Below are positions 1 through 12,675 of a stretch of DNA of 12,675 nt, in pieces (the stretch's first letter is position 1; every line of letters starts with the position of its first letter). Below the pieces are notes generated by a model. That model was given only the letters and a program-made list of their open reading frames with translations, had not been told where the DNA came from and did no database searches. The DNA is from Candidatus Fermentibacterota bacterium (lineage in GTDB: Bacteria; JAFGKV01). A program made the translations under genes and the position numbers. The stretch is taken from positions 1-12,675 of the forward strand of contig JAUXFG010000110.1 in assembly GCA_030620115.1 (NCBI GenBank), written 5' to 3'.

Positions 1-97
1 ATCAACCCATCAACCCATTACCCCATCTCCCCATCTCCCCATCAACCCATCAACCCATTACCCCATCTCCCCATCTCCCCATCACCCCATCACCCCT
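1..97. repeat. C-rich tandem repeat at the 3' end of the sugar-transport operon
   Basis: Bases 1-40 and 41-80 are identical 40-mers built from CCCATC/CCCATTA-like subunits. Bases 81-97 are a degenerate continuation that runs into the last codons and the TGA stop of the MalG-like gene (stop at 90-92). Read on the minus (transcript) strand the repeat is a ladder of GGGG/GGG runs separated by 4-5 nt, which fits the G3+N1-7 pattern of a potential G-quadruplex. The array may continue beyond the window start. A related repeat lies at 3484-3538 in the same position relative to another gene. Confidence 0.95.
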
Positions 98-926
98 TCA
101 CACTCCCCAATGTGAGCCCACCCACAAGCCATTTGGAAAGCGAGAGGAACAGAATCATCACGGGAACTGCCACGATGAGAGCTCCCGCCGCGTACAGACC
201 CCACTCAGTGCTGAAGTTCGACTGAAACATCTTCAAGCCCAGGGGGAGCGTATAGAGCCGCTTATCATTCAGCACTACCGCCGCCACCAAGTATTCACTC
301 CATGCCGCCATAAAACTGAACAATGCGGTGATGACCAGGGCGGGCATAGCCAGAGGAAGCACAATCTTTCTGAACGCACCGAACGCGCCACACCCATCGA
401 TGGCCGCGGCTTCTTCAAGGCTTGAAGGTATGGTATCATAGTAGCCCTTCATGGTCCACACACAGAACGGCAAGGCAGTTGCCGAGTAGATGATGACCAA
501 CCCTCCGAACGTGTTCCAGAGATGAAGGGCGCGAAGCATCATGAACATAGGCAAGAGCAGCATGGTGGCAGGGAACATCTGAGTGGTGATCAGGGAAATC
601 ATGGCGGGCCGGCGCCCCTTGAAGGAGAAGCGACTGATGGCATATCCTGCGGTGGAGGCCAGAGTCACGCCAAGAAGCGTCACACAGAGGCTCACGATTG
701 CCGAGTTCAGCATCCACTTCAGGTAATCCGTGCGCAGGAACAATGTCTTGAATGAATCCAGCGTCGCTCCCTCGGGAATAGGAGCCAACGACCGGCTGTG
801 CAGCTGATCACCAGGCCGAAGACTGACCGTCAGCACACGAATAACCGGATAGACGCTAAAGACCACAAAGAGCAACAGCACGAGATAGATGAGGATGGTC
901 ATCCAAAGCGGATCTCGCTGGATCAT
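90..926 (-). CDS. malG: MalG-like carbohydrate ABC transporter permease
   Basis: Inner-membrane permease subunit of a family-1 (maltose-type) sugar importer, 278 aa, normal length for MalG. About six hydrophobic segments are visible, the first at residues 10-30. The cytoplasmic EAA loop that docks the ATPase is clear at residues 171-195 (EEAAAIDGC ... IVLPLAMP). The C-terminus (GGLTLGSVKG) is the typical MalG ending. The ATG at 924-926 lies 1 nt after the TGA of the upstream MalF-like gene, so the two are probably co-translated. Family assignment to the MalG branch (maltose/maltodextrin/trehalose-type) rests on recalled family similarity; the actual sugar is not determined. The gene ends inside a C-rich repeat. 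No nucleotide-binding subunit follows within the window. Confidence 0.93.
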   Translation of the reverse strand: MIQRDPLWMTILIYLVLLLFVVFSVYPVIRVLTVSLRPGDQLHSRSLAPIPEGATLDSFKTLFLRTDYLKWMLNSAIVSLCVTLLGVTLASTAGYAISRFSFKGRRPAMISLITTQMFPATMLLLPMFMMLRALHLWNTFGGLVIIYSATALPFCVWTMKGYYDTIPSSLEEAAAIDGCGAFGAFRKIVLPLAMPALVITALFSFMAAWSEYLVAAVVLNDKRLYTLPLGLKMFQSNFSTEWGLYAAGALIVAVPVMILFLSLSKWLVGGLTLGSVKG

Positions 927-927
927 C

Positions 928-1806
928 TCAATACACCGCCTCAGTGCCCTTCGTGCTCTTGATGAACCGGATACTGAACAGGAGCAGTATGCCGAATATC
1001 ACCATCGACAGGGCCGCCGCGTAACCAAACCTATAGAGATTGAAGACCGCCCGGTACACATAGGATACGAGAATATGGACCTGATCCGCCGGCCTTCCCC
1101 CGTTGGAGACCAACCAGATCACATTGAACCCATTGAAAGTCCATATGATGCCGAGCGAAATGGCGGGAACAAGCACCGGCCTGAGCAGGGGGAGCGTGAT
1201 GTTCCGGAGCCGCTGCCATCTATTTGCTCCGTCAACCACCGCAGCCTCATAGAGCTCCGTGGGTATGCTTTGCAGGCCGCCCAGCGCGATGATCATCATG
1301 AAGGGAAACCCGAGCCAGATATTCGTGATCAGACATGCGCCAAACGCACTCACAGGCTGCGAGAGCCATGCCACAGGAGCAAGCCCGGTCAGCTTATCCA
1401 ACACAAGATTCACGGCGCCATACTCATAATGAAACATGCCTCGCCACGTCAGAGCGGTGATGTATTGAGGCACGGCCCAAGGAAGCACGAGCAGCGTTCT
1501 GATAATCGCCCGCCCAGGTAGTGGTCTATTGAGAAGAAGCGCGAGAGAGACTCCGATCACCACGTGAAAGAATACATTCACAAACGTCCAAATAACCGTC
1601 TTTGCCAGCGTAACGTAGAAAATCCTCTCGCTGAATACCTTGAGATACTGCTGTCCTCCTATGAGCTTCCAATCCCAGAAATGCCGCATGCTCATGTTGG
1701 AAAAGCTCAGCACCACATTGTACGCAAACGGAAACACCACCACCAGAGCCAGGACCGCTAAGGCCGGGAACGAGAACGAATAGGCGATCTTCTGTTCGCG
1801 TGTCAT
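928..1806 (-). CDS. malF: MalF-like carbohydrate ABC transporter permease
   Basis: Second inner-membrane permease of the sugar importer, 292 aa. It has the short MalF form with about six membrane segments (first at residues 10-36) and lacks the large periplasmic insertion of enterobacterial MalF. The EAA loop is at residues 187-210 (YEAAVVDGANRWQRL ... ITLPLLRP). It would pair with the downstream MalG-like subunit to form the channel. The ATG (1804-1806) overlaps the TGA of the binding-protein gene as ATGA, a sign of translational coupling; the next gene starts 1 nt after its stop. The sugar specificity cannot be told from the sequence. Confidence 0.93.
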   Translation of the reverse strand: MTREQKIAYSFSFPALAVLALVVVFPFAYNVVLSFSNMSMRHFWDWKLIGGQQYLKVFSERIFYVTLAKTVIWTFVNVFFHVVIGVSLALLLNRPLPGRAIIRTLLVLPWAVPQYITALTWRGMFHYEYGAVNLVLDKLTGLAPVAWLSQPVSAFGACLITNIWLGFPFMMIIALGGLQSIPTELYEAAVVDGANRWQRLRNITLPLLRPVLVPAISLGIIWTFNGFNVIWLVSNGGRPADQVHILVSYVYRAVFNLYRFGYAAALSMVIFGILLLFSIRFIKSTKGTEAVY

Positions 1807-3017
1807 TCGTTCATCTCGCGAATCATCTTGAGCGCGGCCTCCTGGGCGTCACGCGCCGCGTCCTCCGGACTCTTAGACCCATTCAGCACCGACTGATAGT
1901 TAGGCCGCATGGCATCCCAAATCGCCCGCATCTCAGGCTCGATGGGCATGGGCCTTCCCACGCGGGCCTGCTCAATGCTGATCCTCAGCAAGGGATCCTG
2001 CTGCAATACAGAGTCCTTCAATGCTTCACTGCGTGAGGGAATTGTTCTCATCTTCCGGGCATACGCCAGCTGCGCCGCGTCGGAGGTCAAGTACATCAGG
2101 AGTTCCGTGACCATCCTTCGACGTTCGCCGGAGACATTGACATTCAGGCTGTATCCCAAGGTGGAGACCATGGGCGTAGACCATTGCCCTGTCGCGGATA
2201 CCTTCGGGATGAGCGTAAGCCCAAGATCGATATCATTCTGGAGGTAGGAGGCCCACGACCACGGGCCATTGATGATCATGGCAGCCCTTCCTTCTTTGAA
2301 GAGGGCATCCGCGGTATCATAATCGCTCTCGGGCGGCAGCACCTTGTGTGTGAACTTCAGATCTTTCATGAACTGGAACGCCGCTACGGTGGCGGGAGCA
2401 TCCAGCGTGGGTTGGGCGTGCTCATCCATCACCCATCCACCGAAGCCCCCAAGAAAAGGCACAAAGAAAAACGGCTCCTCGAAGTTCCAGGCCATGCCGT
2501 AGTAATCGTTTCGCCCGTCTCCGTCCTCGTCTCTGGTCAGCGCCTTGGCCATCTCGATCATTTGATCAGTGTCTTCAGGCGGGATCGGCACCAGGGCCTT
2601 GTTGTACACGAGGTGGAGATGGTTGCCGACCTGATCGCTCACCTGATAAAGATGACCATGGCTCCAGACCAGTCCCTCCGGGACAAAACCCTGAAGGAAC
2701 ACCTCCGGGAGAATCTCTTCCAGCGGTTCAACAAGACCCATTACACTGAACGGCCCCACCTGATCGCTGGGTCCATACACCAGATCAGGACCACTCCCGC
2801 CAAGCACCGAGATCTGATAGTTGCTCCGCAGTTCCTCTGGTTCATAGTAGACCTGAGAACAGGTGATCCCGTGATGAGCAGAGGAGAATTCGGCGAGCAA
2901 TGAATCGAGTATGGCCCGCCCCTCGGGCCGCATGGTGTTCCAGACTATGAAATCACCTTCGCCTCTGGGGCCACAGGAAATCAGAAGAATAACAAGAAGA
3001 CCATAGACACGAAACAT
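1803..3017 (-). CDS. MalE-like extracellular sugar-binding lipoprotein
   Basis: Family-1 solute-binding protein (SBP_bac_1/8 type), 404 aa, expected to capture a sugar in the periplasm and deliver it to the MalF/MalG pair encoded immediately downstream. The N-terminus is a short lipoprotein signal with lipobox L-I-S-C (Cys15), so the mature protein is probably lipid-anchored. Typical features follow: an early hinge-strand region with SGPDLVYGP, the central NGPWSWASY segment, and a C-terminal YLTSDAAQLAYARK...IPSR region. The start is supported by a good Shine-Dalgarno GGGAGG at 3026-3031, 8 nt before the ATG. It is the first gene of the three-gene operon. The ligand is not assignable; a maltodextrin or related oligosaccharide is a guess from the MalG type. 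Confidence 0.9.
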   Translation of the reverse strand: MFRVYGLLVILLISCGPRGEGDFIVWNTMRPEGRAILDSLLAEFSSAHHGITCSQVYYEPEELRSNYQISVLGGSGPDLVYGPSDQVGPFSVMGLVEPLEEILPEVFLQGFVPEGLVWSHGHLYQVSDQVGNHLHLVYNKALVPIPPEDTDQMIEMAKALTRDEDGDGRNDYYGMAWNFEEPFFFVPFLGGFGGWVMDEHAQPTLDAPATVAAFQFMKDLKFTHKVLPPESDYDTADALFKEGRAAMIINGPWSWASYLQNDIDLGLTLIPKVSATGQWSTPMVSTLGYSLNVNVSGERRRMVTELLMYLTSDAAQLAYARKMRTIPSRSEALKDSVLQQDPLLRISIEQARVGRPMPIEPEMRAIWDAMRPNYQSVLNGSKSPEDAARDAQEAALKMIREMNE

Positions 3018-3483: not shown

Positions 3484-3538
3484 TAACCCATCACCCCAAC
3501 ACCCCAACTCCCCAACTCCCCACCCATCTCCCCATCAC
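3484..3538. repeat. C-rich repeat abutting the stop of the family-5 binding-protein gene
   Basis: Irregular 8-9 nt units (CCCAACTCC, CCCATCACC, CCCATCTCC) run directly into the TGA stop (3535-3537). On the transcript strand this is the stop codon followed by G-runs, as at the end of the MalG-like gene. It is of the same family as the 40-bp array at 1-97, though not in perfect tandem copies. Confidence 0.85.
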
Positions 3539-4848
3539 TCCTCAGTCCTCTTAGGCCGATACTCCCACGTGGCAACATCGGCGGTCAGCGGGCCAGGGCC
3601 GGGGTCCACATTGAACCATCCAGGGCTCACCGCAGCCCATTTCCCGAGCCAGCAGAGACAAAGGAGACCAGCCTCTTCCTCTAATAAGACCCTCAGTTCT
3701 CCGGTCAACATTCGCCAATACTCTTCGGTCAGCGCCACATCGACTGCCGCCCGAGCTCTGCTCTGTTGAAGCGGATCGGACATTCCCGGGGGACTAGGTG
3801 GAAGGATCTGCTCCGGTGAGACGGACCATGCGCTCACGTATGCCGCGACCTGCCCATGGTCCCGTCCCTCACCTGCATGAATCTGAGCCGACACAAGACA
3901 CACACGAATCCCAAAATCCTCGATATCACGCTGTATCTCTTCCCCGGCCCTGATGGTCTCCCACTGATCCTGAACCACAATCACCAAGCTCTCAGGGAGA
4001 TCGGCGCGCACTGAAGAAGCGTGGGGGTCCTGAAGCCACGGAGCCCAGGCGCCGGGTACATCCGGGGGCACAGGGCAATCGGTGATCCATGAAGGGCGTG
4101 ACCCGATGCGTGATGCCAGCCTCCGCTTGTCAATAAGCGTGCCGAGCCATCTCCTTGTCTCGGGCGATTCAAGACCAGGGTATTCCGTGTTCCACATCAC
4201 ATAGATCAGGCTATTCACCCTCCTGGCGAAAACCTGGAGGTCGGGTCTGGAGAGGTGAATGTGCCTTCGTTCCTCCATACTGAGGTCATCAAGCGCATCA
4301 ATCTCACCGGAGAGCAAGCGCTCAAATGCCTCCGCCCGGGAGCGGCAAACCACGATCATGATGCCCTCCGGACCGACGCCCGGTGTCTGTCTTGCAAGCA
4401 AGACATGCTGCTGCGGAATCCAGTGGCGGATTTCGAACCCACCTAATCCAGACGCAGTGCCGTCCCTATTCGCGAGACACGGAGCTGCGAGAAGATCCCG
4501 CCAACCGAGCTCCTGTTCCAGAAGACGCAAGTGCGTGCCACGCCGGGAGACTGCTTGGGAACACCCAGTATCGGGCCAAGCGAACCGTGCCAACCCCGCT
4601 GAAGGTACTACCACAAGCCAATGGCCATCTGGAAGTTCTGACCATGCTGATGCCAGGCCCGGACGAAGAACCCAATCTCTCCCGAGAACTGCCCAGGGCT
4701 AAGCGAACAGATGCTCGGGTGCGGGATACATGGCTGGAGAGAACGCATCCTGTGGGGATCCGAGCTCACCGATCCTCGGCACCACCAGAATCCGCAGTTG
4801 GTTCGTGGATACCAGATGAAGTAGGGCAAGCAAAGCGATATGTTTCAC
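3535..4848 (-). pseudogene. Family-5 (peptide-type) solute-binding protein, interrupted by in-frame TAG
   Basis: Reading from GTG at 4846-4848 gives one continuous frame of 437 codons plus TGA, broken only by TAG at 4699-4701 (codon 50). Before the TAG come a signal-like MKHIALLALLHLVST and the first strand LRILVVPRIG. After it come PGLASAW (63-69), GLGGFEI (134-140), the LSGEIDAL segment, an IYVMWNTEYPGLESPETRRWLGTL-type region with IDKRRLA, and DIEDFGIRVCL. All are landmarks of SBP_bac_5 (OppA/DppA) proteins, which bind peptides or other solutes for ABC import. The start is fixed by an in-frame TGA at 4885-4887 and a GGAGG (4853-4857) 4 nt before GTG. The segment between PGLASAW and GLGGF is about half the usual length. 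Two other genes in the window end in TAG, so TAG is a real stop here. Recent nonsense mutation, sequencing error, or readthrough are the options. Downstream GTG 4612-4614 would give a 359-aa protein without signal peptide or first strand. Confidence 0.8.
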
Positions 4849-4903: not shown

Positions 4904-4935
4904 CGGCCGGCATGGGTCAATCTTTTTCTATAGGC

Positions 4936-5015
4936 GTTCAGGGTTCTGGGTTCCCCGTTCAGGGTTCTGGGTTCCCCGTTCAGGATTCTGAGTTCCCCGT
5001 TCAGGGTTCGGTGTT
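4936..5015. repeat. 21-bp tandem repeat (GTTCAGGGTTCTGGGTTCCCC)
   Basis: Two identical 21-bp units lie at 4936-4956 and 4957-4977, followed by a third with two changes (4978-4998) and a partial fourth (4999-5015). The unit is rich in GGTTC, the reverse complement of the GAACC motif in the neighbouring array at 5044-5102, so the two arrays face each other. Confidence 0.95.
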
Positions 5016-5043
5016 GCCTTCTCTTACAAACCTTCACTACCCG

Positions 5044-5102
5044 AACCTTGAACCTTCAACCTTGAACCTTCAACCTTGAACCTTGAACCCATGAACGGTT
5101 AC
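5044..5102. repeat. AACCTTG/AACCTTC 7-bp repeat ending in GAACGGTTAC
   Basis: Six consecutive 7-nt units, AACCTTG or AACCTTC, start at 5044. They are followed by AACCC-AT-GAACGGTTAC (5086-5102), the same ending as the repeat at 3183-3247. The GAACC orientation is opposite to the 21-bp array just to the left, giving an imperfect inverted arrangement over about 165 bp. Confidence 0.9.
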
Positions 5103-6397: not shown

Positions 6398-8527
6398 ATG
6401 AAACGGTTGTTCTTCCTCGCCACGGTCTGTTTGGAACTATGTTTATTCGGCAGTGAGGAAGCCGCTTTCGGGGATGACGCAACTCTACAAGTACTCGCCG
6501 AACGGATCGAGACACTGGAGGCCTCGCCCAGTCGGAGCCCGGCGAGTCTCGATTCCCTCGCCCACCAATTGGGCACGCTCGAAACGATCTATGACTATGT
6601 CGCAACACAGATCACCCATGAGGCATATGCGGGGCGATTGAAAGGGCCGGAGGGCACCCTACGCTCCGGTAGCGGGAATGCGGTGGATCAGAGTGAGCTC
6701 CTGCGAACAATGCTGCACATCGTGGGGGTGCAATGCCGCTATGCGAAGGCCAAGCGCGCAACCCCTGAGGGGACACATGTTGATCACCTATGGGTCCAGA
6801 TCCACAAAGGGAAAAAGTGGGAAGACCTCGATCCCGCATTCCCGGAACTGACCCGGGGAGGAGAACTCCACGGTCATGTCATCACCATGACGGAGCTCCC
6901 TCAAAACCTCAATCACACTGTTCGAATCGACGTCAAGTACCGCTTCGCCGTTGCGGGCAGAAAACAACAGAAGTCGGCATTGGTTCATGAGCTCCACGTG
7001 GCGGATCTTTATGCTCAGCCTCTGACCTTGAGCAATCGATTCACAGGCCGACGGGAAGAGGATCGATTCATGGTCACGGAGGTGCAGCCAATCCTCCAGC
7101 TCGGAACGAAGCTATTCCCCGGGACAATTGTCCCGGAGCAGAGCGAGAAGGAAAAACCTCAACCCAGCTCACGCCTGTTCGATGTCTTCGGTCAGGCTGA
7201 AACTGAACAGGATACCCCACGAGATGGATCTTCCGAAGCGAGAGTGGAGATCCTCGCCCAATGGGTTGAGCTGCAGATCATATCTCCGGGTTCACCCCGG
7301 CGGCGGATTGTCTACACGATCTTTGACCGAGAGTGGGAACGCGATGCCTCTCTGAGCAGTCTTGGCGGCCTGATTACCGCGGTGGCATTTGGTTTCTCCC
7401 CAGTCGAAGTGGAGAAGGATGACTTGGTCATCGGGCTTGCTGCCTGTTCAGCAGACATCCGTGCCCTGATCGAATCGCTCCGCTTGCTCTCGCCGCACGG
7501 TTCGACCAGCAACATCAATACAGCTTCGATCTCGCCCGAAGAGGCCGAGAGGTTGAACCAGGCGCTGGAACAGGGACAGAGAATCCTGGCGTGGTCTCTG
7601 CTGCAGCAGTATCTCCAGCTTTCAGACCAGGCCCTGGGGGTAACCTCGGAGAAGCACGGTATCCACGCATACAGTGGCGCCCCTCGCGCCATTATGGCCT
7701 GTGTCAGCTACCGCGACGAAGAGATCAGATTTGATCTTGACCTACAGGAGAATCCAGCGACCTATGTCATGGCTGATGATGCCCCTGAAGGCTTGCGCGA
7801 ATTCTTGCAGTACCATCGCGGCGTCTATGAGTCACGGCTCGAAGGAGCGGTCATGCAATCCATCACCGGCCATGCCGGGATCACGGCGGGTGACATCATG
7901 TTCGCCGCTCAGGAGCAAGACATCCCGCTGCATGTCGTGGTCAAACAACTCCGGCGGGAGCTTTCTTCATGCACCCTGGAACACCGGGCTAAGGTACTGA
8001 TCAATCAGGCTGTCTCCAGAGGACGGACGGTGCTTCTCCCGGAACGGGCTGTGTCAATCAATGGGAACAAACGCATGGCGTGGTATGAGTACGATCCGGC
8101 AACCGGTTCCATGGTGGGAGTATTCCCCTCAGGCAAGCACCAAAGCATGACGGAGTACTTCAACGAAGAGACGGTGATCACCACCCTGGTTTCACAGGGA
8201 ATGTCGTACTTCTCATCCATGGTGGCAGGGTATTACTTCAGCGTTGCCACGGGCCTGGGGCACTTCTACGCCTGCCTGCTCGACCTCGAAGATCCCGGAA
8301 AACCATGCTTCGGCCAACCTGCGGTATGCGAACCCGCCACAAGAGACGCCATGGTTTTCTGCAAGGCGTGGAAGGAGGCCAAGAAGTACTGGGATATGGC
8401 CGGGGCCGCCCAGGGCCTTGATCTGGCGGGGCTTGTTCCCTGGCCTGATGCATGGGAAACTTTGGCAGGCGATCCATGCGAGCGCGGCATATCGTATGGA
8501 CTCCAGTGGTTCGGATGTGGCCAATGA
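6398..8527 (+). CDS. Exported transglutaminase-like protein lacking the catalytic Cys
   Basis: 709 aa from ATG 6398, which has GGAGG (6387-6391) 6 nt upstream; the in-frame TTG at 6395 is not preferred. Residues 1-25 look like a signal peptide (MKRLFFLATVCLELCLFG...AFG), though Glu13 in the core is unusual. Residues ~55-150 resemble the transglutaminase-like core: a helix with GSGNAVDQSELL (91-102), GVQCRYAKA, then HLWV (His130) and DLDPAF (Asp145). In the usual G-x-C-x-D pattern the Cys position is Ala95, so peptide cross-linking or cysteine-protease activity is unlikely by the standard mechanism. A WYEYDPATG stretch (562-570) resembles one I recall in other large transglutaminase-like proteins. 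The rest is unassigned. Six cysteines fall in residues 626-709 (626, 637, 644, 655, 694, 707), suggesting disulphides outside the cytoplasm. The stop overlaps the next start as ATGA. Confidence 0.8.
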   Translation: MKRLFFLATVCLELCLFGSEEAAFGDDATLQVLAERIETLEASPSRSPASLDSLAHQLGTLETIYDYVATQITHEAYAGRLKGPEGTLRSGSGNAVDQSELLRTMLHIVGVQCRYAKAKRATPEGTHVDHLWVQIHKGKKWEDLDPAFPELTRGGELHGHVITMTELPQNLNHTVRIDVKYRFAVAGRKQQKSALVHELHVADLYAQPLTLSNRFTGRREEDRFMVTEVQPILQLGTKLFPGTIVPEQSEKEKPQPSSRLFDVFGQAETEQDTPRDGSSEARVEILAQWVELQIISPGSPRRRIVYTIFDREWERDASLSSLGGLITAVAFGFSPVEVEKDDLVIGLAACSADIRALIESLRLLSPHGSTSNINTASISPEEAERLNQALEQGQRILAWSLLQQYLQLSDQALGVTSEKHGIHAYSGAPRAIMACVSYRDEEIRFDLDLQENPATYVMADDAPEGLREFLQYHRGVYESRLEGAVMQSITGHAGITAGDIMFAAQEQDIPLHVVVKQLRRELSSCTLEHRAKVLINQAVSRGRTVLLPERAVSINGNKRMAWYEYDPATGSMVGVFPSGKHQSMTEYFNEETVITTLVSQGMSYFSSMVAGYYFSVATGLGHFYACLLDLEDPGKPCFGQPAVCEPATRDAMVFCKAWKEAKKYWDMAGAAQGLDLAGLVPWPDAWETLAGDPCERGISYGLQWFGCGQ

Positions 8528-11373
8528 AAGAGAATCGCCTGATGAAAAACATGGCCGCTCTTATCTTGGGATCCACCTTTGTAGCTCTCTTCGCACTTGG
8601 CTCGGTGCTCTCCGCCGAACCGCCTTCTGTCAATGAGACAGAGCCAAATGATAAGCGGGAACAGGCGCAGAATATTCCTATCCCATGCATCATTTCCGGC
8701 ACCTTCAACCATCAGAGCAAACCAGATCACTATCTGTTCGTGGTGGGCAATGAGGGGCTTCCATCCCTCCACGCAGTACTCTCGGTAAAGGGCACGGTCA
8801 ATCCATACATCCAATTGCTGGACGGAGCCGGCACAAAGCTCACCGAGTCCGACTTCTTCCGGGAAAGTTACGGTGAGAATCTCACAAGCCTCCTCCTTCC
8901 TCCGGGATCCTACTTCCTGTGCGTCAACGTGCGATCTTGGGCACAACAGGAGGGAGTACCCTACCAACTCCGGATCACCCAGGTTCCCGAAGTCACTGTC
9001 GAGGAGATCCGAACCGCGCTCAACAAGGCGCTGGACTATCTCATTGCGCAACAGGAGGATAACGGAGGCTTCGTGGTGAGAATGGGCAAGGTCGCTATGC
9101 CTGCCATGGCGATCCAGGCGTGGCTCGGGGCCGGATGTCTGAACCGTGACGACTGGAAAGCGGTATACCGGGCCATTGACTTCGTGAGAGAGTACTATCA
9201 CGATCCGGCTTCCTCCGGCAAGAATCCGGCACAACAGAAAAAAGCCGGGGGCATCTTTGCTCACAAAGACCTCTACGAGCATGCCATTGCTTTGACTGCA
9301 CTGATCGAGGCATATGCCATGGGCGTCGAGGAAGACCTCCCTGAGGTGATCCGCAATGGGCTGGATTTCCTGCTCCGCGCCCAGTGCTGTGAAGAGCGGC
9401 CGGCCGCCCTCAACGGCCCTATCACCCACGACTCTATCTATCACGGCGGGTGGCGCTATGCCGTGAATTCCACTGATGCCGACATCTCGGTCACAGGCTG
9501 GCAGATCATAACCCTCACCGCGGCCAAGGCTGCGGGATTCCAGGTTCCACCTCAACGACTGACATGGGCCCTGGACTTCGTACGCCGATGCTTCAACAAT
9601 CACTCTAAGGAGTTCGCCTATCGCCCCGCGGGTCGTACGGGCACCGGGCGTAGCGCAATGGGCGCCCTCTCCATGCAGTTGCTTGGCGCAGGAGACACAG
9701 AAGAGGTTGCCCACGCCTTGAGGACTATCATGTACCGTGCCCCCGCCTGGGAGGGGGAACCAGGAGGGACTTACCCGTTCTACTACTGGTACTATGGAAC
9801 CCGCGCGGCATATCTCGCCGGAGGCCAAACGTGGGATCTCTGGCACCAAGCCATGTGTGGTTTGCTCGTGCGGCACCAAAACAAGGATGGCAGTTGGGAA
9901 TTAAATCATGACGAAGAACGGAAGCTTGACAAGGTCTATGGGGCAGCCTTGGGCGCGCTGATCCTCGAGCTCTGTTGTGGGAGCCCCCCGATCTATCTTC
10001 GAACAGAAAAGGCACCCCCGCGGTCACAGGCGCCTCTGCGGGACGAGATCACCGTGTCTATCGACTACCCAACCGCGCGATCAATGGTTCAGGGCAGTAT
10101 GGAGATCAAAGCCATTCCGGAAGTTCCGGATCGGATCCGCGTGCGCCGTGTCACCTTCCTCCTCGATGGAGAGGAGCTGGGTACGGCCACCGCAGCTCCC
10201 TGGGCCTGGGAGACAGACCTGGGTCCGGGTGTCAGATCACGACGGATTCAGGTCGTGGCAGAGAATGATCTTGGTACACAGGCCGAAGCCACGGTCGTCA
10301 CCAAAGAGGGACAGAATAGGGTTCAGATCCGCATCGTCAAGCCCCGGGGCAGAGCCGTGCTGGGGACGAGCAAGATTAAAGTCTCTGCATCAGGGCATCC
10401 CGATTCCCCATTGCGAGAAGTGACCATCCATGTAGATGGACAGGAAGCCTTCAGAGGAGCCGAGCTACCCTTCGAAATGGACTTCGACTTCGGCGCCATC
10501 GGCGGCCAAAAAATCGTGGCCGCCACGGTCAACGCCTTGGGCAAAGAAGCTGCTGACAGTCTTGTCCTGCCTGAGGCGCCGGCCTTGGAGGTCGACTTCG
10601 TGGCTACGGTAACCGATGCCCACAACAACTATGTTTTGGACTTGGAGAAGGAAGGCTTTCTTGTTCGCGAGAACGGGATCACCCAAGAAATTCTTCGTTT
10701 CAGCCGTGAGCTTACCCCCGTGTCCATGGCAATTGTGCTGGACACCAGCGGAAGCATAAGGCGCCATATGAAGGCGGTTCAGGAGGCAGCGGTCCGATTC
10801 GTGTCTCAGATTCGACCTACAGACCGGGTTCTGGTGGTGGACTTCTCTGACCATGCCAAGGTGGTTCAGACATTCACCTCGGACATCTCCCGATTGCAGA
10901 AAGTAATCCGTGGAACCAAGGCAAAGGGCGGCACGGCGCTGTACGATGCAGTGATCACCGCCTGTACCCAACTGAAGCGGGAAAAAGGGCGTACCGCCAT
11001 CATCCTGCTCACCGACGGCAAGGATGAGGATAAGAGAGGAACCGGCCCGGGAAGCAGACACACATTCGAACAGGCCATGGACACGGCGAAAGAGAGCGGT
11101 GTCACAGTGTACGCACTTGGATTGGGGAAGAATATCGCCAGAGCCGTGCTGGAAGACCTCGCAAGGCAAAGCGGCGGCCGTGCCTACTTCCCGCCCACCG
11201 TGAAGGACCTTGCAGAAGTCTACGGGCTGGTCGCCAAGGAGCTCCGGAGCCAGTACACCATTGGCTATTCGTCCACCAATCGAATCCGAAACGGCGAATG
11301 GCGTACATTGGAAGTGACCACGCCCCATCGAACTCTCACGGTCCGTACCAAGGAAGGCTACTTCGCACGCTAG
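8524..11373 (+). CDS. Exported PPC-toroid-Ig-VWA multidomain protein
   Basis: 949 aa from ATG 8524, which overlaps the previous TGA as ATGA; ATG 8542 is an alternative start. The frame is open back to 8452, but that part lies inside the preceding gene. A signal peptide ends at ...GSVLSA (residue 31). Domains follow in order. PPC-type beta-sandwich (~36-157, starting at the ETEPND motif). Alpha/alpha toroid of the squalene-cyclase/prenyltransferase-repeat type (~160-485), with QQEDNGGF and HQNKDGSW repeats, GGWRY (308-312) and DISVTGW (320-326). Two Ig-like domains (~507-597 and ~598-680). VWFA domain of the Acidobacteria-associated type (~686-949), with MIDAS residues DTSGS (Asp740), Thr804 and Asp831, and C-terminal QYTIGYSS. 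The cyclase DxDD acid motif is only D318-A-D320-I, so terpene cyclisation is unlikely. The intact MIDAS suggests metal-dependent protein binding. Probably acts outside the inner membrane with its coupled partner. Confidence 0.85.
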   Translation: MKENRLMKNMAALILGSTFVALFALGSVLSAEPPSVNETEPNDKREQAQNIPIPCIISGTFNHQSKPDHYLFVVGNEGLPSLHAVLSVKGTVNPYIQLLDGAGTKLTESDFFRESYGENLTSLLLPPGSYFLCVNVRSWAQQEGVPYQLRITQVPEVTVEEIRTALNKALDYLIAQQEDNGGFVVRMGKVAMPAMAIQAWLGAGCLNRDDWKAVYRAIDFVREYYHDPASSGKNPAQQKKAGGIFAHKDLYEHAIALTALIEAYAMGVEEDLPEVIRNGLDFLLRAQCCEERPAALNGPITHDSIYHGGWRYAVNSTDADISVTGWQIITLTAAKAAGFQVPPQRLTWALDFVRRCFNNHSKEFAYRPAGRTGTGRSAMGALSMQLLGAGDTEEVAHALRTIMYRAPAWEGEPGGTYPFYYWYYGTRAAYLAGGQTWDLWHQAMCGLLVRHQNKDGSWELNHDEERKLDKVYGAALGALILELCCGSPPIYLRTEKAPPRSQAPLRDEITVSIDYPTARSMVQGSMEIKAIPEVPDRIRVRRVTFLLDGEELGTATAAPWAWETDLGPGVRSRRIQVVAENDLGTQAEATVVTKEGQNRVQIRIVKPRGRAVLGTSKIKVSASGHPDSPLREVTIHVDGQEAFRGAELPFEMDFDFGAIGGQKIVAATVNALGKEAADSLVLPEAPALEVDFVATVTDAHNNYVLDLEKEGFLVRENGITQEILRFSRELTPVSMAIVLDTSGSIRRHMKAVQEAAVRFVSQIRPTDRVLVVDFSDHAKVVQTFTSDISRLQKVIRGTKAKGGTALYDAVITACTQLKREKGRTAIILLTDGKDEDKRGTGPGSRHTFEQAMDTAKESGVTVYALGLGKNIARAVLEDLARQSGGRAYFPPTVKDLAEVYGLVAKELRSQYTIGYSSTNRIRNGEWRTLEVTTPHRTLTVRTKEGYFAR

Positions 11374-11403: not shown

Positions 11404-11446
11404 ATAGCCTGGGCCATCCAAGATGTTAGTCGAGTATCCAGGCTAT
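11404..11446 (+). promoter_or_regulatory. Inverted repeat enclosing the start codon of the GT-C-like gene
   Basis: ATAGCCTGG (11404-11412) and CCAGGCTAT (11438-11446) form a perfect 9-bp stem with a 25-nt loop holding the ATG (11423-11425). In mRNA this would place the ribosome-binding region and start codon inside a hairpin loop. It could limit initiation or couple it to ribosomes leaving the upstream gene, whose stop is 30 nt before the stem. No good Shine-Dalgarno is visible. A terminator is unlikely, as no T-run follows. Confidence 0.45.
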
Positions 11447-12675
11447 CGTCCCCGTCTTCCTGAGAGCAACCTTCTCGTATTCCTCGTACTGACGATTCTC
11501 TGCTTCGTCTCCTTCATGCCAACTCTTAGTGCTCTCTATACTCCAGAATTCGTGGCACACTACGGCCCCCTGCTTACCAAGCAAAGATCCATAGATCTCT
11601 CATGGGTAGGCGAAGAGGCCATCAGATTCCGCAAGTTCCGCCCCCTCTCCTCCCTGACACATATGGGGTTGATTGGGCTTTTCGGCACACAGCCAATCCC
11701 CTATAAATCAGTACATCTCCTGCTGCACGTATGCTGTGGGTTTCTCCTGTTTCTGATAGTGGCCGGCTGGTCGAGGCGATTGACGGCATTCCTGACCGCC
11801 GCGCTCTTTCTGTTTCTACCCACAGAACTGCAGTACCAGTCACTCACCCACGTCATGTCATTGGAACGAATTCTCTCTCTATCGCTGCTGCTGGCGAGCT
11901 ATCTCCTCTGGAGGGCTGGGGATAGATCACTGATCTCATGGAGCCTGGTGGGGAGTGCGGTGCTGTACGGACTCGCGCTCCTGTCCAAGGAATCGGTGAT
12001 GCTTATGCCTTTCGCATTCCCCTTGCTGTACATGTATGTGGAAAAGGAAGGCTCATTTCGGTTCCGAAGGGCATATCTTCGGTTGCTCTGGTTCGGTCTC
12101 CTTCTCGTTACCTACTGGACTGTCCGCACACAGATGCTTTCGCACCTCGACTATGGGGTAGGGTCGAATCAGATTCGGCTCAATTCTGATCTTCTGCTTC
12201 GAAACATCTCCGAAGCCGGCGTTTACCTCCTGGGGCTGAGACCTGGCCCGGTTCCTTCGCGGTTTCCCCTGATGGCATGGTTCGCTATTCTTGCGTCGCA
12301 GTTTGTCCATAGATCGTGGGGCGCACGGATTGCTGGAATTATGTGGATCATGGTGGCAGTGGGTGCCCATCTTCATCTGCGGTTCTTTGGTGCAAACTAT
12401 GTGTACGCTGCTGTGCCTTGGCTCTGCTACACGGCCGTTCTGCTTCTTGATAGAGCCTTCTTTTCCCTCCGTATGCGCGCCCCAGTGTCTGCTATAGCAT
12501 GGATCCTCTTGCTGGCCATCATGATGTTGTACTCCCATGGGGGATCGATTCGTGAGGCGGGACCCTGGAGTTGCCTCTATGAGGTGGCATCACGAGTCGC
12601 CCGGAAGGAGCGTTGCCCCGGGGGATCTCTAGACGTGCAATTGAGTTCCAACCGAGACGTGGTGGATCCCGGAGA
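11423..12675 (+). CDS. GT-C/PMT-like multi-pass membrane glycosyltransferase, 3'-truncated by window end
   Basis: The frame is open from ATG 11423 to the window end (417 complete codons). The start is fixed by an in-frame TAG at 11405-11407. About nine hydrophobic segments are seen, the first at residues 17-38. FRPLSSL (72-78) leading into a second membrane span with HLLLHVCCGFLLFLI, and LALLSKESVMLMPF with Lys189-Glu190, are landmarks I associate with the PMT/TMTC-like branch of GT-C enzymes. These use polyprenyl-phosphate sugars to glycosylate on the outer face of the membrane. The first external loop, where such enzymes carry an acidic DD/DE pair, reads YTPEFVAHYG with a lone Glu42, so activity is uncertain. 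It lies 49 bp after the VWA gene on the same strand and is probably co-transcribed. It might modify or serve the exported partners, but that is inference. A soluble tail begins near residue 375. Confidence 0.75.
   Translation, partial: MLVEYPGYRPRLPESNLLVFLVLTILCFVSFMPTLSALYTPEFVAHYGPLLTKQRSIDLSWVGEEAIRFRKFRPLSSLTHMGLIGLFGTQPIPYKSVHLLLHVCCGFLLFLIVAGWSRRLTAFLTAALFLFLPTELQYQSLTHVMSLERILSLSLLLASYLLWRAGDRSLISWSLVGSAVLYGLALLSKESVMLMPFAFPLLYMYVEKEGSFRFRRAYLRLLWFGLLLVTYWTVRTQMLSHLDYGVGSNQIRLNSDLLLRNISEAGVYLLGLRPGPVPSRFPLMAWFAILASQFVHRSWGARIAGIMWIMVAVGAHLHLRFFGANYVYAAVPWLCYTAVLLLDRAFFSLRMRAPVSAIAWILLLAIMMLYSHGGSIREAGPWSCLYEVASRVARKERCPGGSLDVQLSSNRDVVDPG

What the first reader, a model, noticed from the sequence alone, without database searches (positions are those of the whole stretch)
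6398..11373. Translationally coupled pair: Cys-less transglutaminase-like protein plus PPC-toroid-Ig-VWA protein
Seen: two large exported proteins overlap by ATGA, and each has a degenerate enzymatic fold (Ala95 in place of the transglutaminase Cys; DADI in place of the cyclase DxDD). The second also has an intact VWA MIDAS. Known: VWA with MIDAS binds proteins through a metal ion, and Ig and PPC domains are adhesive or accessory. Inference: the pair may form an extracytoplasmic binding complex in which old enzyme folds serve as scaffolds. I know of no described system with this pairing.
Basis: partly seen in the sequence, partly recalled or inferred. Interest (0 to 1): 0.65.

Follow-up and report, generated by a model that had tools for sequence, protein, structure and literature searches.

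The report
Inactive-transglutaminase and adhesion-protein gene pair
Two back-to-back genes make a pair of exported proteins, a transglutaminase look-alike that has lost its catalytic cysteine and a many-domain sticky protein; the same pair recurs in a distant bacterial phylum, and related proteins carry exchangeable toxin-like tails, so this looks like an undescribed offshoot of the bacterial contact-toxin and adhesion machinery.

Summary
P0001 (6398-8524) is an exported transglutaminase-like (TG) protein with Ala95 at the Cys position and His130/Asp145 kept. P0002 (8524-11370) is PPC + alpha/alpha toroid + two Ig + VWA with an intact MIDAS. They overlap by ATGA. The pair is not a one-off: a genome of another phylum (G221) has both genes in the same order (27% and 38% identity). 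A third phylum (G158) has a TG/PPC-VWA pair with the same ATGA overlap, and elsewhere VWA is fused to P0001-like domains. Cys is absent in 14 of 14 family members (A, S or D). "DADI" is not a damaged cyclase motif: D-x-D-[LIMT]-S is the consensus of this toroid class. P0001 also carries a conserved C-terminal domain without a Pfam model ("TGLC"); in two related genomes TGLC proteins have exchangeable tails interleaved with toroid genes, as in polymorphic toxins. Inactive TG domains in Sec-exported RHS polymorphic toxins are already described (Zhang 2012); the link to VWA/toroid/PPC partners and TGLC was not found in the literature searched. Most likely function: a non-catalytic surface binding complex, an offshoot of that toxin machinery. 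Function and complex formation are inferred, not shown.

The parts
6398..8527 (+). P0001: exported, Cys-less transglutaminase-like protein, 709 aa plus stop
   Evidence: ORF and translation; Transglut_core; GGAGG ribosome site
6398..6475 (+). signal-peptide-like N-terminus of P0001 (read from sequence)
   Evidence: sequence MKRLFFLATVCLELCLFGSEEAAFG
6572..6835 (+). transglutaminase core, residues 59-146; Ala95 codon at 6680-6682; His130 and Asp145 kept
7754..8185 (+). conserved C-terminal domain (named TGLC here), residues 453-596, no Pfam model
   Evidence: own profile from 8 relatives; no Pfam hit
8186..8524 (+). C-terminal tail of P0001, Cys-containing, no family; corresponds in position to the variable tails of G307/G022
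8524..11373 (+). P0002: exported PPC-toroid-Ig-VWA protein, 949 aa plus stop; alternative start at 8542
8632..8979 (+). PPC-like domain, residues about 37-152
   Evidence: alignment with G221 PPC repeats and hhalign to G158 PPC; G221 third repeat is itself below the Pfam cut-off
8998..10005 (+). alpha/alpha toroid (squalene-cyclase-like repeats), residues 159-494; DADIS at 9475-9489
   Evidence: A1 profile, toroid alignment, relatives hit SQHop_cyclase/Prenyltrans
10051..10590 (+). two Ig-like domains (Big_7); end of the second approximate
10723..11223 (+). VWA domain with intact MIDAS (D740xSxS, T804, D831); TIGR03436 region runs to the end of the protein

Best explanation
The pair encodes the two halves of an extracytoplasmic, non-catalytic binding complex. 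P0001 is a pseudo-transglutaminase whose cleft (His and Asp kept, Cys gone) binds a peptide or protein instead of cross-linking it, and whose TGLC domain and tail form its functional end. P0002 is the adhesive partner: its VWA MIDAS holds a ligand through a metal ion, and PPC, toroid and Ig domains act as spacer and scaffold. Tight translational coupling makes the two in fixed ratio for assembly after Sec export. It is an offshoot of the Sec-exported inactive-TG modules known from polymorphic toxins. Shown: genes, domains, Cys loss across the family, conserved pairing and fusions, modular tails in relatives. Inferred: peptide binding, metal-dependent ligand binding, physical complex, surface location.
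For: Pair kept in another phylum, same order and close spacing. Toroid of the pair is a distinct type: 899-973 bits in G000 and G221, next best 155 bits in 386 genomes, so two of two carriers have the neighbour. G158: TG-like gene overlaps a PPC+VWA gene by ATGA. VWA fused to TG-like/TGLC in G130/G266, G118 and G121; VWA gene near TGLC in G170. VWA within 5 kb of TGLC: 5 seen, 0.41 expected, P about 7e-5. Cys absent in 14 of 14 family members, His kept in 11. Toroid genes beside TG-like genes in G307, G022, G311, G230. Inactive TG as peptide-binding anchor proposed earlier (PMC3482391).
Against: Only two genomes carry the full PPC-toroid-VWA pair. The two other genomes of the window's family lack P0001. 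No structure of either protein or complex (pLDDT 37 and 36). The VWA subfamily differs between the window (TIGR03436) and G221, so the ligand may differ. No experiment shows binding or surface location.
Confidence: 0.5

Rival explanations
1. Contact-dependent antagonism: P0001 is a polymorphic-toxin-like effector whose C-terminal tail acts on neighbouring cells, and P0002 is its display or target-binding partner.
For: In G307/G022 TGLC proteins have cores 70-92% alike but mostly unrelated tails (17-34%); one tail is 99% identical between the two genomes although the cores are only 75% alike, which points to cassette exchange. G022 tails include NlpC/P60. G230 carries TG plus RHS repeats. Small genes of unknown family follow the cassettes.
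Against: The window tail has no known toxin family, is not strongly hydrophobic, and no immunity-like small gene follows; P0002 does. The G221 tail looks like a diverged copy of the same tail, not a swapped one.
Confidence: 0.2
2. The two genes are merely co-transcribed envelope proteins with separate functions and no complex.
For: Large exported proteins of this build are common in such genomes (20-33 VWA matches in some), and operon neighbours need not touch.
Against: Pairing kept across phyla plus separate fusions of VWA with TG-like/TGLC domains.
Confidence: 0.15
3. P0002 works like a complement/alpha-2-macroglobulin or transcobalamin toroid and captures a ligand in the toroid cavity, with P0001 as accessory.
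For: Toroids beside TG-like genes in G307 match TED_complement (E=8e-9 and 5e-12) and weakly bMG3.
Against: P0002 itself gives no TED hit; by sequence it is closest to planctomycete-type toroids, some of which sit beside DUF4175 genes.
Confidence: 0.1
4. P0001 is still an enzyme that uses another nucleophile.
For: His130 and Asp145 are kept; Ser stands at the Cys position in 6 of 14 family members.
Against: The same position is Ala or Asp in the other 8, and His is missing in 3; no replacement Cys is conserved.
Confidence: 0.05

Closest known systems
Inactive transglutaminase domains of Sec-exported polymorphic (RHS) toxins, Zhang et al. 2012, PMC3482391
   Same: N-terminal signal or TM, transglutaminase core that lost catalytic residues, occasional bacterial Ig domains, proposed peptide-binding anchor; the G230 relative carries TG plus RHS
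   Different: P0001 has no RHS repeats, has the TGLC domain and an unclassified tail, and is coupled to a toroid-VWA gene; the paper says such TGs are followed by RHS repeats, and its held text does not mention von Willebrand, squalene or prenyltransferase
VWFA-related domain TIGR03436 proteins
   Same: VWA of P0002 scores 176 bits against a cut-off of 81 and has an intact MIDAS
   Different: usual members were not compared here; P0002 adds PPC, toroid and Ig domains and a coupled partner
Prenyltransferase/squalene oxidase repeat proteins of the planctomycete type
   Same: toroid with the D-x-D-[LIMT]-S motif
   Different: those are mostly stand-alone toroids, some beside DUF4175 genes, and score under 160 bits against more than 890 for the pair type
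TgpA-type transglutaminase operons (MoxR-DUF58-TgpA-VWA), from general knowledge; no paper retrieved
   Same: a transglutaminase gene near a VWA gene
   Different: TgpA is a polytopic membrane protein with a catalytic Cys; no MoxR or DUF58 gene was seen in the window

Membership tests
Transglut_core (PF01841), by sequence | profile match above curated cut-off | tested here: met
   35.2 bits against 23
Active transglutaminase / papain-like enzyme | catalytic Cys-His-Asp | tested here: not met
   Cys replaced by Ala95; Cys absent in 14 of 14 family members
Inactive-TG polymorphic toxins (Zhang 2012) | export signal followed by TG core with lost catalytic residue | tested here: met
Inactive-TG polymorphic toxins (Zhang 2012) | RHS repeat array after the TG | tested here: not met
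   no RHS hit in P0001; RHS present in relative G230
Inactive-TG polymorphic toxins (Zhang 2012) | variable C-terminal toxin tail | tested here: inconclusive
   variable tails shown in G307/G022; the window tail has no family
Inactive-TG polymorphic toxins (Zhang 2012) | adjacent small immunity gene | tested here: not met
   the next gene is P0002, then a multi-pass membrane protein at 11423
Squalene-hopene cyclase | DxDD motif | tested here: not met
   DADI; the class consensus is DxD[LIMT]S
VWA (TIGR03436) | profile match above cut-off and MIDAS | tested here: met
PPC (PF04151) | Pfam profile match above cut-off | tested here: inconclusive
   no Pfam hit for P0002; indirect support through G221 and G158
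Alpha-2-macroglobulin/complement TED | TED profile match on P0002 | tested here: not met
   no hit; TED hits only on toroids of G307

The most novel reading that the evidence does not exclude
A widespread but undescribed two-gene contact system: a pseudo-transglutaminase/TGLC protein with an exchangeable effector tail is co-made with, and displayed or aimed by, a toroid-PPC-Ig-VWA adhesin; the window pair is a member whose tail is a new effector type.
Probability: 0.2. Interest if true: 0.75.

Novelty: new variant of a known kind. Interest (0 to 1): 0.52.

Why it matters
Inactive transglutaminase domains at the front of bacterial polymorphic toxins have had only a brief proposed role since 2012. 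This locus and its relatives give them a recurrent genomic partner (VWA/PPC/toroid adhesins, coupled or fused, in several phyla) and a conserved domain without a Pfam model, TGLC, that sits just before an exchangeable tail in two genomes. That makes the role of the pseudo-enzyme testable, by asking whether the two proteins bind each other and what the MIDAS and the dead cleft hold.

Tried and rejected
Plasmids gave one weak planctomycete toroid and one weak match to the P0001 C-terminal region in an unannotated stretch. PDB profile searches with the toroid, TGLC and P0001 profiles gave at best a weak terpene cyclase match. PHROGs matched only the VWA and PADLOC gave nothing, so no phage or defence link. 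Considered and rejected: DADI as evidence of a decayed cyclase (class consensus); chance adjacency. Full-text searches for transglutaminase-like with VWA and squalene cyclase or PPC found no paper.

Full report
What was checked. The window is the whole of contig C264 of a 4.1 Mb, 296-contig genome whose phylum has only three held genomes. P0001 starts at ATG 6398 behind GGAGG and ends with TGA 8525-8527; P0002 starts at ATG 8524, giving ATGA. An alternative start at Met7 (8542) would leave 14 nt between stop and start, the same as in the G221 pair. Either arrangement suits coupled translation. Consensus promoter and terminator hits in the region are no more than chance and lie on the other strand.

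Domains. P0001: Transglut_core at 59-146 (35 bits, cut-off 23). P0002: VWA, TIGR03436 (176 bits, cut-off 81) and Big_7, the last in two stretches. The toroid is recognised through relatives that pass Pfam cut-offs for squalene-cyclase or prenyltransferase repeats. PPC is the weakest assignment: EtEPND motif and alignment with G221 repeats, hhalign to the G158 PPC E=1e-4, but no direct Pfam hit. MIDAS D740xSxS/T804/D831 is intact.

Active sites. Ala95 stands at the catalytic Cys position: the relative L028 reads ANCCDQA where P0001 reads GNAVDQS. In 14 family members, P0001 included, the residue is Ala (3), Ser (6) or Asp (5), never Cys; His is kept in 11 (with DHWWLQV of L052 read by eye). Loss of the Cys is therefore family-wide and probably old. 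The toroid motif is D-x-D-[LIMT]-S in most of the ten aligned toroids, so DADI is ordinary for the class.

Is the pair kept? A search of 386 genomes with P0001 and inspection of the neighbours found G221, of another phylum (the two phylum lists do not overlap): an 801-aa TG-like protein (27% identity) followed 14 nt later by a protein with three PPC repeats, the same toroid (38% identity over the aligned part) and a VWA. A profile of this toroid gives 899 and 973 bits in G000 and G221 and at most 155 bits elsewhere; both carriers have the TG-like neighbour. These two sequences built the profile, so their own scores are inflated, but the gap to the next toroid was already plain with P0002 alone (305 bits for G221 against 75 for the best other toroid). 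The two other genomes of the window's family lack P0001, so the pair is scattered.

Wider links. P0001 residues 453-596 form a conserved domain with no Pfam model, called TGLC here. It occurs in 15 of 386 genomes at E<=1e-4. Beside it or in the same ORF are: PPC+VWA with ATGA overlap in G158; lectin+VWA+TG-like in one ORF in G130/G266 and TG-like+VWA in G118; tandem VWA in one ORF in G121 and a VWA gene nearby in G170; toroid genes in G307, G022, G311 and, weakly, G230. With VWA hits over the curated cut-off, five independent loci lie within 5 kb of a VWA against 0.41 expected (P about 7e-5). Contig ends and shared descent are ignored there, so the figure is rough. G232, G085, G190, G402 and two paralogues in the window's own genome show no such partner, some of them at contig ends.

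Link to toxins. In G307 and G022, which belong to one family (f21), TGLC cores are 70-92% alike while tails are mostly 17-34% alike; one tail is 99% identical between the two genomes over cores that are 75% alike. Two further G022 copies with more distant cores have NlpC/P60 tails, one above the cut-off. Many cassettes are followed by a small gene of unknown family and the arrays are interleaved with toroid genes. G230 joins an inactive TG to RHS repeats. This is the build of polymorphic toxins, and Zhang et al. (PMC3482391, section 19) described inactive TGs at the front of Sec-exported RHS toxins as likely peptide-binding anchors.

Reading. The window pair shares the front end of that machinery, but has no RHS, no small immunity-like gene and an unclassified tail. 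The best-supported reading is a non-catalytic extracytoplasmic binding complex, P0001 as pseudo-enzyme subunit and P0002 as MIDAS-bearing adhesive subunit. The toxin reading stays open for the tail. What is shown: genes, domains, residue losses, recurrence of the pairing and fusions. What is inferred: location, binding, complex and function. Structure models were too poor to help.

Noticed in passing
L065, L117, L118 (G307:C54) and L064, L119, L120 (G022): Arrays of TGLC cassettes with conserved cores and exchanged tails (hydrophobic or NlpC/P60), many followed by a small gene of unknown family and interleaved with toroid genes: a candidate polymorphic toxin array for which no described name was found.
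   Followed up: partly
L052:1421-3688 (+): In G221 a second transglutaminase-like gene that keeps its Cys (GICIEHSRF) lies convergent to the pair, 27 bp beyond its end.
   Followed up: no
L126:2035-7214 and L125:1951-7014: Stand-alone toroid genes directly follow DUF4175-like genes (overlapping by 4 bases in L126), another recurrent toroid partner.
   Followed up: partly
window 11423-12673 (+): Gene 50 bp after P0002, running off the contig: multi-pass membrane protein that resembles a GT-C glycosyltransferase by eye, no Pfam hit; may share the operon.
   Followed up: no
window 90-3017 (-): Sugar-type ABC importer set (two permeases and a binding protein); nearby 3535-4614 (-) is a weak SBP_bac_5-like protein without its transporter.
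   Followed up: no
window 1-101, 3487-3522, 4935-5089: Short tandem repeats with 7-, 8- and 21-base units (ATCACCCC, CCCAACAC, GTTCAGG types), mostly in the gaps between genes.
   Followed up: no
L111 (G000:C36:2051-5314) and L112 (G000:C196:1-3981): Two TGLC paralogues in the window's own genome, both cut by contig ends.
   Followed up: partly
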